Origin: Planctomycetaceae bacterium
GTDB lineage: Bacteria > Planctomycetota > Planctomycetia > Pirellulales > UBA1268
Direction of reading: 5' to 3'
Length of the DNA: 64,000 nucleotides
Assembly (NCBI GenBank): GCA_947449135.1
Contig: CANFQO010000003.1
Location: forward strand, 1 to 64,000
A program made the translations under genes and the position numbers. Positions 56,628 to 63,646 of the stretch are shown here, piece after piece. Below the pieces are notes generated by a model. It was not told the DNA's origin and made no database searches. It saw nothing but the letters and a program-made list of their open reading frames with translations. Numbering within the stretch: position 1 is the stretch's first letter; each line of letters opens with the position of its first letter.

Positions 56628-56720
56628 ATGCCTATAACCCTCGCCATAGCCACCGTCGTCGCTGTTCTGCTGGCGGCGTACCTCGTGGTGGCCATGCTCG
56701 CCCCGGAGAGGTTTGGCTGA
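56628..56720 (+). CDS. kdpF: KdpF, small subunit of potassium-ATPase
   Basis: A 30-residue single-helix peptide (MPITLAIATVVAVLLAAYL then VVAMLAPERFG). The PERF/LAPERFG end is the KdpF signature. KdpF stabilises the KdpFABC complex in the membrane. Its TGA overlaps the kdpA ATG in TGATG, which fits translational coupling. The 217-base spacer upstream, shared with the divergent DUF1080 gene, must hold the kdp promoter; no operator could be named. Confidence 0.9.
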   Translation: MPITLAIATVVAVLLAAYLVVAMLAPERFG

Positions 56721-58507
56721 TGCTGCTTCAGGCATGGCTTGAGGTCGTCTGCATTCTGATCGCCACGTTGCTTGCGGCGTGCGCGGTGGCACCCTGGCTG
56801 GCGGCCATCTTCCGCATCGACACGGCGGATAGCGTTCCGGGCCGCTGCGAATCATGGCTCGAGCGACTCGAGCGGCCTGTGCTGCGCCTGGCGGGCGTGT
56901 GGCCGGTGTGCGAGATGACAGCGGGAGCCTACGCGGCGGCGATCTTCGTCTTCCATGCGGCCGGAATCATTCTGCTCGTGGCCATCCAACGCCTCCAGCC
57001 GCTGCTCCCCTGGAACCCCGACCAACTCCCTGCCGTGCCCTGGCTGATCGCGATCAATACGGCGGCCAGCTTTGCCACCAACACGAACTGGCAGTCGTAT
57101 GGCGGAGAGACCACGCTCTCGCCGCTGACCCAGACGCTCGGCCTGACCGTCCAGAACTTCCTGTCAGCTGCCAGCGGGCTGTGCGTGCTGGCCGTGCTTA
57201 CCCGCGGTCTCGTCCGGCGTGACAGCCGCACGGTCGGCAACTTCTGGCAGGACCTCGTGCGATCCACGCTCGGGCTGCTGCTGCCGTTGGCGGTTCTCCT
57301 CGGATTGGTGCTCGCCAGCCAGGGCGTGGTGCAGTCGTTCGGCACCGCGATCGAGGTGCCGCTGCTCGACCAGTCGCTGCCGACTGCCGCAGCAACACCA
57401 ACGAAGCAGCGAATCGTGATCGGACCAGTCGCCTCGCAGGTCGCCATCAAGCAGCTCGGCACAAACGGTGGTGGCTACTTCAACGCCAACAGTGCCCACC
57501 CCTTCGAGAACCCGACGCCGCTCACCAACCTGCTCGAAATCGTCGCCATGCTCACGCTTCCGATCGCGAGCTGCCTCGCCTTCGGCCGCTGGGTGGGGGA
57601 TCGTCGGCAGGGACGGGCACTCCTGGCGGCGATGGCCATGCTTTTCCTGCCATTCCTGCTGATCATCGTCCGCTGTGAAACCCAACCGTCTCCCCTGCTG
57701 GCTGCCGTCACGCCGGCGATCGACCAGACCGCGTCCGGCGCTCATGAGGGCGGATCGATGGAGGGCAAGGAGGTGCGGTTTGGGCCGGCGGCGTCGGCTC
57801 TCTTTGCCGTCGGCACGACGGCCACGAGCTGCGGTGCCGTGAACGCCATGCACGACAGCTTCTCGCCGCTCGGCGGCATGGTGGCCATGTGGATGATCCA
57901 ACTCGGCGAAGTCGTGTTTGGCGGTGTCGGCACCGGGCTGGCGGGGCTGATCGCCTACACGCTCGTGGCGGTGTTCATCGCCGGCCTGATGGTAGGCCGT
58001 AGCCCCGAGTATCTCGGCAAGAAGATCGAGGCACGGGAGATGAAGATGGGCATGGTCGTGCTGCTCGTGCCACTGATCGCCACCCTCATCGGCACCGCCG
58101 CGGCCTGCGTGCTCCCGTCGGAGGCGTCCGCGGCACTCAATCCCGGGCCGCATGGGTTTTCCGAGCTGCTGTATGCGTTCTCCAGTGCCGCCAACAACAA
58201 CGGCTCGGCCTTCGGCGGCCTGACCGCCACGAGCGGCTTCTGGACGCTCTCGCTCGCTGCCGCGATGCTCGCCAGCCGACTGCTCACGATGCTGCCGCTC
58301 GTCGCGATCGGCGGATCGCTGGCCGCCAAACGGACGGTGGCCGAAAGCCCCGGCACCCTGCCGACCCACACGCCGCTGTTCGTGCTTCTCGTTGCGGGCA
58401 CGGTGATCCTCGTCGGAGCGCTGTCGTTCGTGCCGGCCCTTGCGCTCGGCCCCCTGGCCGAGGCGCTCCAGCCGTTGCCGACCGCGGCTGGGGGAGGCAA
58501 GCCATGA
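56720..58507 (+). CDS. kdpA: Potassium-transporting ATPase subunit A
   Basis: A 595-residue membrane subunit that binds and conducts K+. All four selectivity-filter-like loops are visible: [51 protein letters not shown] and [13 protein letters not shown]. About ten helices. Length is close to the family norm. The ATG overlaps kdpF stop; the 3' end overlaps kdpB start by four bases (ATGA). Confidence 0.97.
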
Positions 58508-60579
58508 GCCACGACACGCAGGCCGGCATCCTCGGTGACCCCGCTGCGATCCTTCGTGCGGCGGGCGAGGCATTCGTGAAGCTCGATCCGCGGCGGATGA
58601 TCCTCTCGCCCGTGATGTTCACGATCGAGGTCGGTGCCGTGCTGATCACGATGCTTGCCGTGGCCAGGGCCGCTGGTCAACCAGGCGCAGAACACCCGGC
58701 GTTCATTGCCGCGGTGGCTGTCGGACTCTGGGCAACGGTGATCTTCGCCAATTTCGCCGAGGCGATGGCAGAGGGCCGTGGCCGCGCGCAGGCCGACGCC
58801 CTCCGCCGCACCCGCAGCGACACCCTCGCCAAGCGGCTGGCCGCGCCGCAACGGGATGCGGCGATCGAACAGACGCCGTCCACGCAACTCCGCCGCGATG
58901 ATTACGTGCTGATCGAAGCGGGCGACATCGTGCCGGGAGACGGCGAGGTGGTCGACGGCGTCGCCACCGTGGATGAGAGTGCGATCACCGGCGAGAGCGC
59001 GCCGGTGATTCGGGAGAGCGGCGGCGACCGCAACACCGTCACCGGCGGCACACGGGTGCTTTCCGACTGGCTTGTCGTGCGGATCACGGCCAATCCCGGC
59101 GAGAGTTTTCTCGACAAGATGATCTCGATGGTGGAGGGCGCGAAGCGGCAGAAAACGCCCAACGAGATCGCACTCGACATCCTGCTGGCCGGTCTGACGC
59201 TCGTCTTTCTGGTCGTCACCGCCACACTGCTGCCCTACTCGATCTATGCCGTGAGTGCCGCGGGCCGCGGCGAACCACTCGGCTTGGCAGTGCTTGCAGC
59301 GCTCTTCGTGTGCCTCGCCCCCACCACGATCGGCGGCCTCCTGCCGGCGATCGGCATCGCCGGCATCGACCGGATGGTGCGGGCCAACGTGCTGGCCACC
59401 AGCGGCCGCGCGGTCGAAGCCGCAGGAGACGTTGACGTGCTTCTTCTCGATAAGACCGGCACCATCACGTTCGGAAACCGGCAGGCGTCCACTTTCCTGC
59501 CGGCGACGGGTGTCAGCGAGCACGACCTCGCCGACGCCGCCCAGCTGGCAAGCCTCGCGGACGAGACGCCGGAAGGCAGGTCGATCGTCGTGCTGGCCAA
59601 GGAGCGGCACGGCATCCGCAGCCGCGACATCGAGTCGCTGAACGCGGAGTTTGTCCCCTTCACCGCCCAGACGAGGATGAGCGGCGTCGACTTCGACGGC
59701 CGGTCGATCCGCAAGGGCGCGCGTGACACGATCGTGAAGCACGTGTTGACTGCCGGGGGCACGGTGCCGCCGGAAGTGCACCGCATCTGTGACGACGTGG
59801 CCAAGGCCGGGGCCACGCCGCTGGTCGTGGCCGACGGTGCCACAGTGCTGGGGGTGATCGAGCTCAAGGACATCGTCAAGGGAGGCATCGCCGAACGCTT
59901 CCAGGAACTCCGCGCGATGGGGATCCGCACCGTGATGATCACCGGCGATAACCCGCTCACCGCTGCCGCCATCGCGGCAGAGGCAGGTGTGGACGACTTC
60001 CTCGCAGAGGCCACGCCAGAGGCAAAGCTGGCCATGATTCGTCGTTACCAGCAGGAGGGGCATCTGGTCGCCATGACGGGCGACGGCACCAACGACGCCC
60101 CGGCACTCGCGCAGGCCGACGTCGCGGTGGCGATGAATTCGGGCACGCAGGCGGCCAAGGAGGCGGGCAACATGGTCGACCTCGACAGCAATCCCACCAA
60201 GCTGCTGGAAATCGTCGCCGTCGGCAAGCAGTTGTTGATGACGCGGGGAAGCCTCACGACCTTCAGTCTCGCCAACGACATCTCCAAGTATTTTGCGATC
60301 GTGCCGGCAGCCTTCGGCAGCATCTATCCGCAGCTCAAGTCGCTCGACGTGATGCGACTGCACTCGCCGACAACGGCCGTGCTCGCCGCCGTGGCCTTCA
60401 ATGCGTTCGTGATCGTCGGGCTCGTCCCGATGGCTCTCAAGGGCGTGAAGTATCGCCCGCTGCCAGCCGCAGTGCTGCTGCAGCAAAACCTCCTGGTCTG
60501 GGGCCTCGGCGGGCTGCTGCTGCCGTTTCCCTGCATCAAGCTGCTCGACATGCTCCTCGCCGCCTGCGGAGTGAACTGA
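58504..60579 (+). CDS. kdpB: Potassium-transporting ATPase subunit B (P-type)
   Basis: A 691-residue P-type ATPase that powers K+ uptake. The actuator motif is AITGESAPV; the phosphorylation site is [13 protein letters not shown] with Asp316; the P-domain [17 protein letters not shown] and the nucleotide-binding N-domain with [15 protein letters not shown] and KGA are intact. The membrane Asp/Lys helix and the last hydrophobic region ([20 protein letters not shown]) are present. It overlaps kdpA and kdpC. Confidence 0.97.
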
Positions 60580-61229
60580 TGCCAGCTCCCTCGAAGAATC
60601 CCAGCCCCCCGGGGCTCGCCGCGGTCCTGATCGCCCAAGTGCGTCCGGCATGCACCCTGCTCCTGGCCCTCGCCCTGATCACCGGCGTGCTGTATCCCCT
60701 TGGCATGACCGTCGCGATCCAAACGCTGTTTCCACGACAGGCCGGCGGCAGCCCACTGCGGGATGCCGAGGGCGTTGTCCGCGGCTCCGCGCTCATCGGC
60801 CAGCCATTCAACGCACCGCAGTGGTTTCATGGCCGACCGAGCTCTACAGGCAATGCCCCGTATGACCCGACCGCGTCGGGCGGTTCAAACCTCGGGCCGA
60901 CGAATCCCGCCCTGGCTAGAGCCGTTCGCGAGCGGGCAGACGCCCTGACGCAGGGCAACCCCGGCCATGCCGGCTCGATCCCCATCGATCTCGTCACCGC
61001 CAGCGGCAGCGGACTTGATCCGCACATCTCGCCGCCGGCGGCACTCCTGCAGGTGCCACGCGTCGCCGCCGCCCACGGGGTCGATGAGTCAGCCGTACGA
61101 CAGCTGGTGGCGCAGCATGTCGAACCGGCCGTGTTGGGCATCTTTGGCCGTCCGAGGGTGAACGTGCTGCAGTTGAATCTCGCGCTGGAATCGATCCCCC
61201 GCAACACTGAAGTCTCCCAACGGAAATAA
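60579..61229 (+). CDS. kdpC: Potassium-transporting ATPase subunit C
   Basis: A 216-residue subunit with one N-terminal helix (ACTLLLALALITGVLYPLGM) and the conserved exported part: QAGGSPLRDAEGVVRGSALIGQPF, PQWFHGRPSS, SGGSNLGPTNPALARAV, VTASGSGLDPHISPPAALLQV and RVAAAHGVDESAVRQLV. It starts on kdpB's stop (TGATG) and ends 10 bases before kdpD. Assists K+ transfer in the Kdp complex. Confidence 0.96.
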   Translation: MPAPSKNPSPPGLAAVLIAQVRPACTLLLALALITGVLYPLGMTVAIQTLFPRQAGGSPLRDAEGVVRGSALIGQPFNAPQWFHGRPSSTGNAPYDPTASGGSNLGPTNPALARAVRERADALTQGNPGHAGSIPIDLVTASGSGLDPHISPPAALLQVPRVAAAHGVDESAVRQLVAQHVEPAVLGIFGRPRVNVLQLNLALESIPRNTEVSQRK

Positions 61230-61239
61230 GTCCGCCACG

Positions 61240-63195
61240 ATGCCGACCGAGCCGTCACGCCCCGATCCCGATGCGTTGCTGGCCAGCATCCAGGCGGATG
61301 AGAGGCAGGCATCACGCGGTCGATTGAAGGTGTTTTTCGGGTTCTCTCCCGGTGTCGGCAAGACCTACGCCATGCTCGAATCGGCGCAGCGGCTCGCCGC
61401 CGCGGGCACCGACGTCGTCGTTGGGATCATCGAAACGCACGGCCGAGCCGATACCGCCGCACTCGTGGAGGGGCTGGAAGTGCTGCCCCGTCTCTCGGTT
61501 CCCTATCGCGGACACACGCTTCGGGAATTCGACCTCGACGGTGCCATCGCCCGAAGGCCGAAGGTGCTGCTCATCGATGAGATGGCCCACACGAATGCCC
61601 CGGGGCTGCTCCATCCCAAACGCTGGCAGGACATCTTCGCGATCGTCGATGCGGGCATCGATGTGCACACCACGCTGAACGTGCAGCACGTCGAGAGCCT
61701 CGTCGATCTGGTGGAGCAGGCCACCGGTGTGCGGGTGAAGGAAACCGTTCCCGACGACGCTCTCGACCGCGCGGATGAGATCGAATTGATCGACCTGCCA
61801 CCGGAAGAACTGCTCGAGCGACTGAAGGCCGGGAAAATCTACCTGCCCGAGGTGGCGGCCCGGGCAACGGAGCGTTTCTTCAAGCGATCCAATCTGCTCG
61901 AACTCCGTGAGCTATCGCTACGACGGATGACCCAGCGGGTCGACCGCGACGTGGACTCGGCCCGCCGCGCCGTGGGAGATGGGCGGGTTCGCGGCACCGC
62001 CGAGCGGATCCTCGTGGCCGTGGGACCGAGTCCTGCATCGGCCCGCCTGCTCCGCAAGGCCCATCGCGTTGCGACAGGACTCCGCGCGGAATGGGTGGCC
62101 GCCTCGGTGGAGATTCCGGCGGCATCTCCGCCCTCCTCCAAGGCCTTGGAACAACTGGAAGCCAACCTGCGGGTGGCCGAATCGCTCGGCGGGCACGTGG
62201 TCCGCATCGCGGGCACGAGCATCGCCGATGCGCTGCTCCACGAAGCCGAACGCACGGGAGTGACACGCATCCTCATCGGTAAGCCGCGGCACCACGAGCG
62301 CTGGTTTTCACTGGGGGAAAACATCGTCGACCGGCTCGTTCGGCGCAGCGAGAACATTGACGTGCTCGTGGTCTGCGGCGACGACGGTGAACCAGCGCCG
62401 ATCCCTACCCACCTCGATAGCCGGGCATCTCGCCCTCTCGCCGGACTGGGCTACGTCGCCGGCACGCTCGCCATGATGACGGCGGTGGGCTGCTGGCTCT
62501 GGCCGTCTGTCGACTCCACCATTCTGAGTCTGGTATCGCTGCTGATCGTGATGACCTCCTCGCTCTGGTTCGGCAGGCGGTCCGGCATCATCGCGGTCGT
62601 GCTCGCAGCGCTGTTGATCAATTTCTTCTTCGTGCCGCCGTTCTACACGTTCGTCATCGCCAACTCCACCGACATCGTAGCCCTGTCGATCCTGCTTTCC
62701 GTGGGCCTGATCGTGGCGGAGTTGTTGGTGCGGCTGAAAGTGCAGACGTCGCTGGCCGTCGATCGCGAGCGGCGGACGTCGCGGCTTTTGGAACACTCAC
62801 GGAGCCTTGCCATGGCCGTCGACGCCGATGCGGTAGCCTCCGCACTCGCCGATTCAGTCGCCGGCGTTGTGGATGCCTCGATCGTCGAGGTGCATCTGGC
62901 CGATCCGGTTGATGGCCTGCGGGTGAAGGCACGCCATGGCTCGATCCCGGCACAGAAGGAGGAGGCGGGCGTCGTGTCCTGGACGCATGAATCCGGCCGC
63001 ATCGCCGGGTTGGGCACGGCCACGCTCCCCGGTGCGCTGGTCACCTGCTTGCCGATCCGTCACAGCGGCAACGCACTGGGCGTGTTGCTGATCGCGTTCG
63101 ATCCGCCACGGCCGCTCACTCGCGACGAGAGCGGTCTGATCACGTCGCTGGTCGAACAGACTGCCATCACGCTCTCCAGTCTGAAAAAGCACTGA
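61240..63195 (+). CDS. kdpD: KdpD sensor without histidine-kinase core
   Basis: A 651-residue KdpD. N-terminal KdpD domain: GFSPGVGKTYAMLESAQ (P-loop), VVVGIIETHGR, LLIDEMAHTNAPG, HPKRWQDI and DVHTTLNVQHVESL. A universal-stress-protein-like domain follows (ILVAVGPSPASARLLRKAHR), then four helices (YVAGTLAMMTAVGCWLW to LSILLSVGLIVAELLV) and a GAF domain to about residue 645. The protein stops (KKH, stop) just where HisKA and HATPase domains should begin; E. coli KdpD is about 895 residues. Beyond it the next gene is on the opposite strand, so no kinase fragment follows and no kdpE is present. Confidence 0.9.
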   Translation: MPTEPSRPDPDALLASIQADERQASRGRLKVFFGFSPGVGKTYAMLESAQRLAAAGTDVVVGIIETHGRADTAALVEGLEVLPRLSVPYRGHTLREFDLDGAIARRPKVLLIDEMAHTNAPGLLHPKRWQDIFAIVDAGIDVHTTLNVQHVESLVDLVEQATGVRVKETVPDDALDRADEIELIDLPPEELLERLKAGKIYLPEVAARATERFFKRSNLLELRELSLRRMTQRVDRDVDSARRAVGDGRVRGTAERILVAVGPSPASARLLRKAHRVATGLRAEWVAASVEIPAASPPSSKALEQLEANLRVAESLGGHVVRIAGTSIADALLHEAERTGVTRILIGKPRHHERWFSLGENIVDRLVRRSENIDVLVVCGDDGEPAPIPTHLDSRASRPLAGLGYVAGTLAMMTAVGCWLWPSVDSTILSLVSLLIVMTSSLWFGRRSGIIAVVLAALLINFFFVPPFYTFVIANSTDIVALSILLSVGLIVAELLVRLKVQTSLAVDRERRTSRLLEHSRSLAMAVDADAVASALADSVAGVVDASIVEVHLADPVDGLRVKARHGSIPAQKEEAGVVSWTHESGRIAGLGTATLPGALVTCLPIRHSGNALGVLLIAFDPPRPLTRDESGLITSLVEQTAITLSSLKKH

Positions 63196-63211: not shown

Positions 63212-63646
63212 TCAACGCTTCCACGCCAACACCAGCACGCCTGCGGCCACCATGAGAATGCCGGCCCATTCACGAACAGCCGGCCGCTCGTGAAGGAACA
63301 GCACCGCAAACACAGCCACGAGCACCAGGCTCAGCTTGTCCACGGGCGCCACCTTGGAAGCATCGCCGATCTTCAGCGCGCGGAAGTAGCAGACCCACGA
63401 CGCTCCGGTGGCGAGGCCCGACAACAGCAGAAACAACAACGTTTTCGGAGGAAGCGTCAACGGATTCGCCCACTTTCCGGTCGCCACCACAAAGGCGGTC
63501 AGCACCACCGCGATGATTCCGGTGCGGACGAGCGTCGCCAGATCAGAATCAACCCCGGCAAGGCCGACCTTCGCGAAGATGGCCGTCAGGGCCGCGAACA
63601 CGGCCGACATGAGCGCCCAGACAAACCATGTTTGACTCGTCTCCAT
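63212..63646 (-). CDS. EamA-family transporter, single-domain
   Basis: A 144-residue protein with five hydrophobic helices and one EamA domain: TWFVWALMSAVFAALTAIFAK, LVRTGIIAVVLTAFVVATG, LLFLLLSGLATGASWVCYFR and VDKLSLVLVAVFAVLFLHER, then WAGILMVAAGVLVLAWKR. The length fits half-size EamA proteins that dimerise. AAGGAG lies upstream of the ATG. Substrate unknown. It is convergent with kdpD (17-base gap). Confidence 0.85.
   Translation of the reverse strand: METSQTWFVWALMSAVFAALTAIFAKVGLAGVDSDLATLVRTGIIAVVLTAFVVATGKWANPLTLPPKTLLFLLLSGLATGASWVCYFRALKIGDASKVAPVDKLSLVLVAVFAVLFLHERPAVREWAGILMVAAGVLVLAWKR

What the first reader, a model, noticed from the sequence alone, without database searches (positions are those of the whole stretch)
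61240..63195. kdpFABC with a kinase-less KdpD and no KdpE
KdpD keeps its N-terminal P-loop, USP, four-helix and GAF domains but ends exactly before HisKA/HATPase. No kdpE follows, and the next gene is antisense, so this is not a simple frameshift. Shortened KdpDs are known in some bacteria, but here the membrane and GAF parts remain. Regulation may use another kinase, direct control of KdpFABC, or c-di-AMP binding by the USP part.
Basis: partly seen in the sequence, partly recalled or inferred. Interest (0 to 1): 0.62.

Follow-up and report, generated by a model that had tools for sequence, protein, structure and literature searches.

The report
Shortened KdpD brake for potassium pump
A planctomycete carries a potassium pump whose usual sensor kinase has lost its gene-switching half but keeps the half that, in other bacteria, phosphorylates and shuts off the pump; the architecture has been described before, and this is a new lineage of it.

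Summary
kdpFABC (56628-61229) is followed by a 651-aa KdpD (61240-63195) with KdpD, USP, four-helix DUF4118 and GAF domains, no HisKA/HATPase and no kdpE. It is not a sequencing error: ten relatives stop at the same place and all regions are under purifying selection. No KdpE orthologue or KdpD-type histidine kinase was found elsewhere in the assembly. The tree needs at least four changes between full-length and short KdpD in Planctomycetota, best read as separate losses.

Calling it "kinase-less" misleads. Silberberg et al. 2024 (PMC11018627) showed that KdpD's N-terminal domain is itself a serine kinase that inhibits the pump through KdpB Ser162, and described KdpDs with truncated DHp/CA domains in species without KdpE. 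The catalytic residues they tested are present here (Tyr for Trp39), and KdpB has the target TGES serine (Ser165).

Best explanation: a post-translational off-switch for KdpFABC, gated by TM/GAF K+ sensing and/or the USP domain. c-di-AMP input is possible (a DacZ-type cyclase is present), but the Firmicutes USP motif is not met. New member of a known kind; modest interest.

The parts
56628..56720 (+). kdpF, 30-aa membrane peptide, overlaps kdpA start by one base
   Evidence: sequence read and motif scan, conserved upstream of kdpA in relatives
56720..58507 (+). kdpA, K+ channel-like subunit
   Evidence: TIGR00680 660.9 bits, PF03814 715 bits
58504..60579 (+). kdpB, P-type ATPase subunit; TGES motif 162-165, so Ser165 is the counterpart of E. 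coli Ser162; DKTG begins at 316
   Evidence: TIGR01497 1028.6 bits; motif positions
60579..61229 (+). kdpC
   Evidence: PF02669 231 bits, TIGR00681
61240..63195 (+). short KdpD, 651 aa: atypical serine kinase domain 26-234, USP about 254-380, four TM helices from 401, the last running on to 525, GAF 529-650, stop
61351..61368 (+). codons for Walker A GVGKT (38-42) and Tyr43 (position of E. coli Trp39) of the serine kinase domain
   Evidence: residue roles from PMC11018627
61576..61581 (+). codons for Walker B Asp113/Glu114 (E. coli D109/E110)
61819..61821 (+). codon for Arg194 (E. coli Arg190, adenine clamp)
   Evidence: invariant column
63212..63646 (-). antisense EamA-type transporter, 144 aa; not conserved next to kdpD in relatives, not part of the system

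Best explanation
The short KdpD is a membrane-anchored atypical serine kinase whose only retained output is post-translational. When K+ is plentiful it transfers phosphate from ATP to Ser165 (TGES) of KdpB and shuts the KdpFABC pump off. The four-helix and GAF sensor parts (and perhaps the USP domain) gate this activity in place of the lost histidine kinase. Transcription of kdpFABC is then constitutive or under an unrelated regulator. Shown here: architecture, conservation of the catalytic and target residues, absence of the HK module and KdpE, purifying selection, and repeated evolutionary truncation. Inferred from E. coli and D. geothermalis biochemistry: the serine phosphorylation and pump inhibition. 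Inferred only: which domain carries the signal.
For: All residues found important in E. coli KdpD map at a constant offset of 4: Walker A GVGKT, W39 as Y43, D109/E110 as D113/E114, R190 as R194. Walker A and D/E are invariant in the 15 short and 73 full-length proteins examined, Y43 in all but one (Phe), and R194 in the 40-row alignment (roles from PMC11018627). KdpB keeps TGES with Ser165. The domain fold matches 2r8r (TM 0.92-0.95). The serine kinase domain is the most constrained region (dN/dS 0.05-0.13 against 0.15-0.5 for GAF), with every region below 1. kdpD stays directly downstream of kdpC in all short-KdpD loci where the stretch can be read except L060, where one gene intervenes. In PMC11018627, KdpDs without HK domains make up about 90% or more of those in species without KdpE, and this lineage fits.
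Against: No experiment on any planctomycete KdpD. Tyr replaces Trp39, although nearly all full-length KdpDs examined also have Tyr there. GAF is the fastest-evolving part, so its sensing role could be relaxed. The mechanism does not explain how transcription is switched on.
Confidence: 0.8

Rival explanations
1. c-di-AMP, not K+, is the main input: the DacZ-type cyclase makes c-di-AMP at high K+, it binds the USP domain and turns on the serine kinase, as for D. geothermalis KdpD. The TM part then serves mainly as an anchor.
For: A DAC-domain protein is present in this genome and in 11 of 12 genomes with short KdpD, this one included. The USP fold matches 7ji4. D. geothermalis KdpD responds to c-di-AMP (PMC11018627).
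Against: The Firmicutes binding motif (A/G/C)XSXSX2N(Y/F) is not met (GPSPASARL here) and is absent from all sequences examined. It is absent from D. radiodurans KdpD too, so the test is inconclusive. TM and GAF are retained under purifying selection, which a USP-only sensor would not need. No c-di-AMP riboswitch in the genome.
Confidence: 0.3
2. A separate histidine kinase elsewhere supplies the missing output, with the short KdpD as a co-sensor, as in split KdpD systems (D. radiodurans, Anabaena, or family f60 of this phylum).
For: Split systems exist (PMC5716572), including in this phylum: f60 genomes have a 734-739-aa KdpD plus a separate TM-GAF-HK followed by KdpE.
Against: In this genome the best HK match to the KdpD kinase domain is 32-36% and the best KdpE-like regulator 39%, ordinary background. 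The only other DUF4118 protein is a HisKA_3 kinase without GAF. Eight relatives have no other DUF4118 protein. The assembly is 96% complete.
Confidence: 0.1
3. The truncation is a decaying remnant: HK lost by deletion and the rest drifting.
For: GAF evolves fastest, and full-length to short changes recur.
Against: Same end point kept in 11 genomes (window included) with 54-88% identity to the window protein, dN/dS well below 1 in every region, catalytic residues intact.
Confidence: 0.05

Closest known systems
KdpD with truncated DHp/CA domains in species lacking KdpE (Silberberg et al. 2024, PMC11018627; noted for Campylobacterota and Archaea)
   Same: KdpD-USP-TM-GAF kept, histidine kinase activity lost, KdpE absent
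   Different: Here no DHp residue remains; lineage is Planctomycetota, which the main text does not name; sequences not compared directly because its supplement was not available
E. coli KdpD (tandem serine/histidine kinase)
   Same: Same first four domains and the same serine kinase residues
   Different: E. coli has the HisKA/HATPase module and KdpE
Short KdpD/USP proteins of Deinococcus and cyanobacteria; NCBIfam KdpD_non_kinase NF038185
   Same: Serine kinase and USP domains without a histidine kinase
   Different: Those are about 365-373 aa without TM or GAF; this protein scores 326 against a cut-off of 550
Split KdpD in family f60 of the same phylum (L142/L143, L144)
   Same: KdpD-USP-TM-GAF chain without HATPase next to kdpABC
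   Different: Those keep a roughly 75-aa DHp-like remnant and have a separate TM-GAF-HK with KdpE

Membership tests
KdpD family (PF02702 domain) | PF02702 domain above gathering score | tested here: met
   304.9 bits against 26.1
Canonical KdpDE two-component system | C-terminal HisKA and HATPase_c | tested here: not met
   no match; ORF ends at GAF
Canonical KdpDE two-component system | cognate KdpE | tested here: not met
   best response regulator in assembly 39%
Truncated KdpD acting as serine kinase only (PMC11018627) | Walker A, Walker B Asp-Glu and adenine-clamp residues | tested here: met
   G38-T42, Y43 for W39, D113, E114, R194
Truncated KdpD acting as serine kinase only (PMC11018627) | KdpB TGES serine target in the same operon | tested here: met
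   TGES 162-165
Truncated KdpD acting as serine kinase only (PMC11018627) | phosphorylates KdpB and inhibits the pump | not testable with these tools
   needs biochemistry
c-di-AMP-binding KdpD-USP (S. aureus type) | (A/G/C)XSXSX2N(Y/F) motif | tested here: not met
   GPSPASARL, motif from PMC8214093
KdpD_non_kinase NF038185 | score above cut-off 550 | tested here: not met
   326.5

The most novel reading that the evidence does not exclude
Planctomycetes repeatedly and independently discarded KdpD's transcriptional half while keeping the K+-sensing membrane and GAF domains under selection, so that these sensors now gate only the serine kinase. That would be direct K+-controlled, purely post-translational regulation of the pump, with no transcriptional KdpDE arm.
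Probability: 0.5. Interest if true: 0.42.

Novelty: new member of a known kind. Interest (0 to 1): 0.27.

Why it matters
It offers a natural separation of the two KdpD functions. A K+-sensor-bearing serine kinase without the histidine kinase lets one ask directly whether the TM/GAF sensors gate the serine kinase in the absence of the HK module, a control question that PMC11018627 left partly open. The recurrent loss in one phylum supports the view that the post-translational brake, not the transcription switch, is the conserved core of KdpD.

Tried and rejected
Sequencing error or frameshift at about 63190: rejected (same end in ten relatives). Distant orphan HK/KdpE: not found. c-di-AMP riboswitch: none near kdp or in the genome. 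Conserved regulatory DNA upstream of kdpF: none beyond kdpF itself. The supplement of PMC11018627 could not be read, so its list of truncated KdpDs was not checked for Planctomycetota.

Full report
What is there. The + strand carries kdpF (56628-56720), kdpA, kdpB, kdpC and then a 651-aa kdpD at 61240-63195. KdpD has the PF02702 domain (26-234), a USP domain found by fold (7ji4), the DUF4118 four-helix membrane domain (406-507) and GAF (530-645), and stops there. An AlphaFold2 model (mean pLDDT 81; pTM 0.43, so the placement of the domains relative to each other is uncertain) ends with the full C-terminal helix of GAF, residues 628-650. Sixteen bases later the antisense EamA gene ends, so no kinase relic follows.

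Not an artefact. The closest relative (88% identity, L002/G046) and the copies in G047, G053, G011, G009, G043, G050, G069, G060 and G055 end at the same alignment position, apart from short tails of up to about 22 residues. Pairwise dN/dS is below 1 in every region: about 0.05-0.13 in the KdpD domain, 0.08-0.35 in USP, 0.09-0.24 in the membrane part and 0.15-0.5 in GAF (Nei-Gojobori, rough).

What is missing in the genome. There is one PF02702 protein. The KdpE query finds 57-68% matches beside full-length KdpDs of other genomes (G055, G141, G078, G127, G075) but only 39% here and at most 43% in the genomes that have only the short form. The KdpD histidine kinase query gives 49-62% matches in genomes with full-length KdpD (G055, G141; G105 holds the query's own sequence) and 32-36% here. 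The only other DUF4118 protein here is a HisKA_3-type kinase near the end of contig C43. In eight relatives with short KdpD there is no other DUF4118 protein. G055 is instructive: it has one kdp locus with a short KdpD and a second with full-length KdpD and KdpE.

Evolution. In a 90-row tree, 15 short proteins need four changes of state, all forced by well supported branches (quick method, SH-aLRT only). They are the window's clade of 11, the G014+G031 pair (next to a full-length protein), G143 and L060. Loss is the likely direction because each group lies among full-length proteins; the root is not known. The window's clade branches near myxobacterial KdpDs, so its history may include transfer. 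The module is also patchy (none of four same-genus genomes has it) and has different neighbours in its closest relative. A phylum-wide sample shows that full-length KdpD is the commonest form, with family f60 as a second group lacking HATPase.

How it most likely works. Silberberg et al. 2024 (PMC11018627; [quoted passage not shown] that this needs Walker A, D109, E110 and the W39/R190 pair; and that KdpDs without HK domains, including forms with only DHp/CA truncated, occur mainly in species without KdpE. Inhibition by Ser162 phosphorylation was established earlier (PMC7535926). Here Walker A, D113/E114 and R194 are present, Tyr43 stands at the W39 position as in nearly all homologues examined, and KdpB has TGES with Ser165. 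The protein is therefore best read as the pump's post-translational brake. That it phosphorylates KdpB is inferred from homology, not shown. The E. coli residue numbering was matched by a constant offset of 4 using the residues named in the paper.

Input signal. PMC11018627 found K+ control of serine kinase activity in full-length E. coli KdpD and c-di-AMP control in the TM-less D. geothermalis protein. This protein has both the membrane/GAF part and a USP domain, and the genome has a DacZ-type diadenylate cyclase. The Firmicutes c-di-AMP motif is absent, but it is absent from D. radiodurans KdpD too, so this does not decide the matter. Retention of TM/GAF under selection favours K+ input. Transcriptional control is unknown; no riboswitch and no conserved upstream element were found.

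Verdict. Real, functional-looking, and already explained in outline by published work. New is the lineage and the recurrence of the truncation within Planctomycetota.

Noticed in passing
L142 5966-8170, L143 5612-7834, L144 3304-5523 and 12205-14652: In family f60 of the phylum, KdpD (734-739 aa) keeps a roughly 75-aa decayed DHp (the phospho-His position reads Tyr in G311) without HATPase, while a separate TM-GAF-HisKA-HATPase kinase followed by KdpE lies elsewhere: a split with the sensor part on both chains.
   Followed up: partly
L124 4776-6797 and L125 1767-5157 (one genome, G055): One genome carries two kdp loci, one with short KdpD and no kdpE, one with full-length KdpD and KdpE.
   Followed up: no
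window 56628-61229 and L002: The kdp module is patchy in the family and sits among different neighbours even in an 88%-identical copy, suggesting transfer or repeated loss.
   Followed up: partly
genome G000 (contig C6:27952-29292): No TrkH found, one Kup-type K+ transporter found, so Kdp and Kup are the K+ uptake systems detected among the families searched.
   Followed up: no
L128 5925-7898 (G143) and L060 7204-9971: Two further short TM-GAF KdpDs (657-659 aa) outside the window's clade; in L060 an extra gene lies between kdpC and kdpD.
   Followed up: partly
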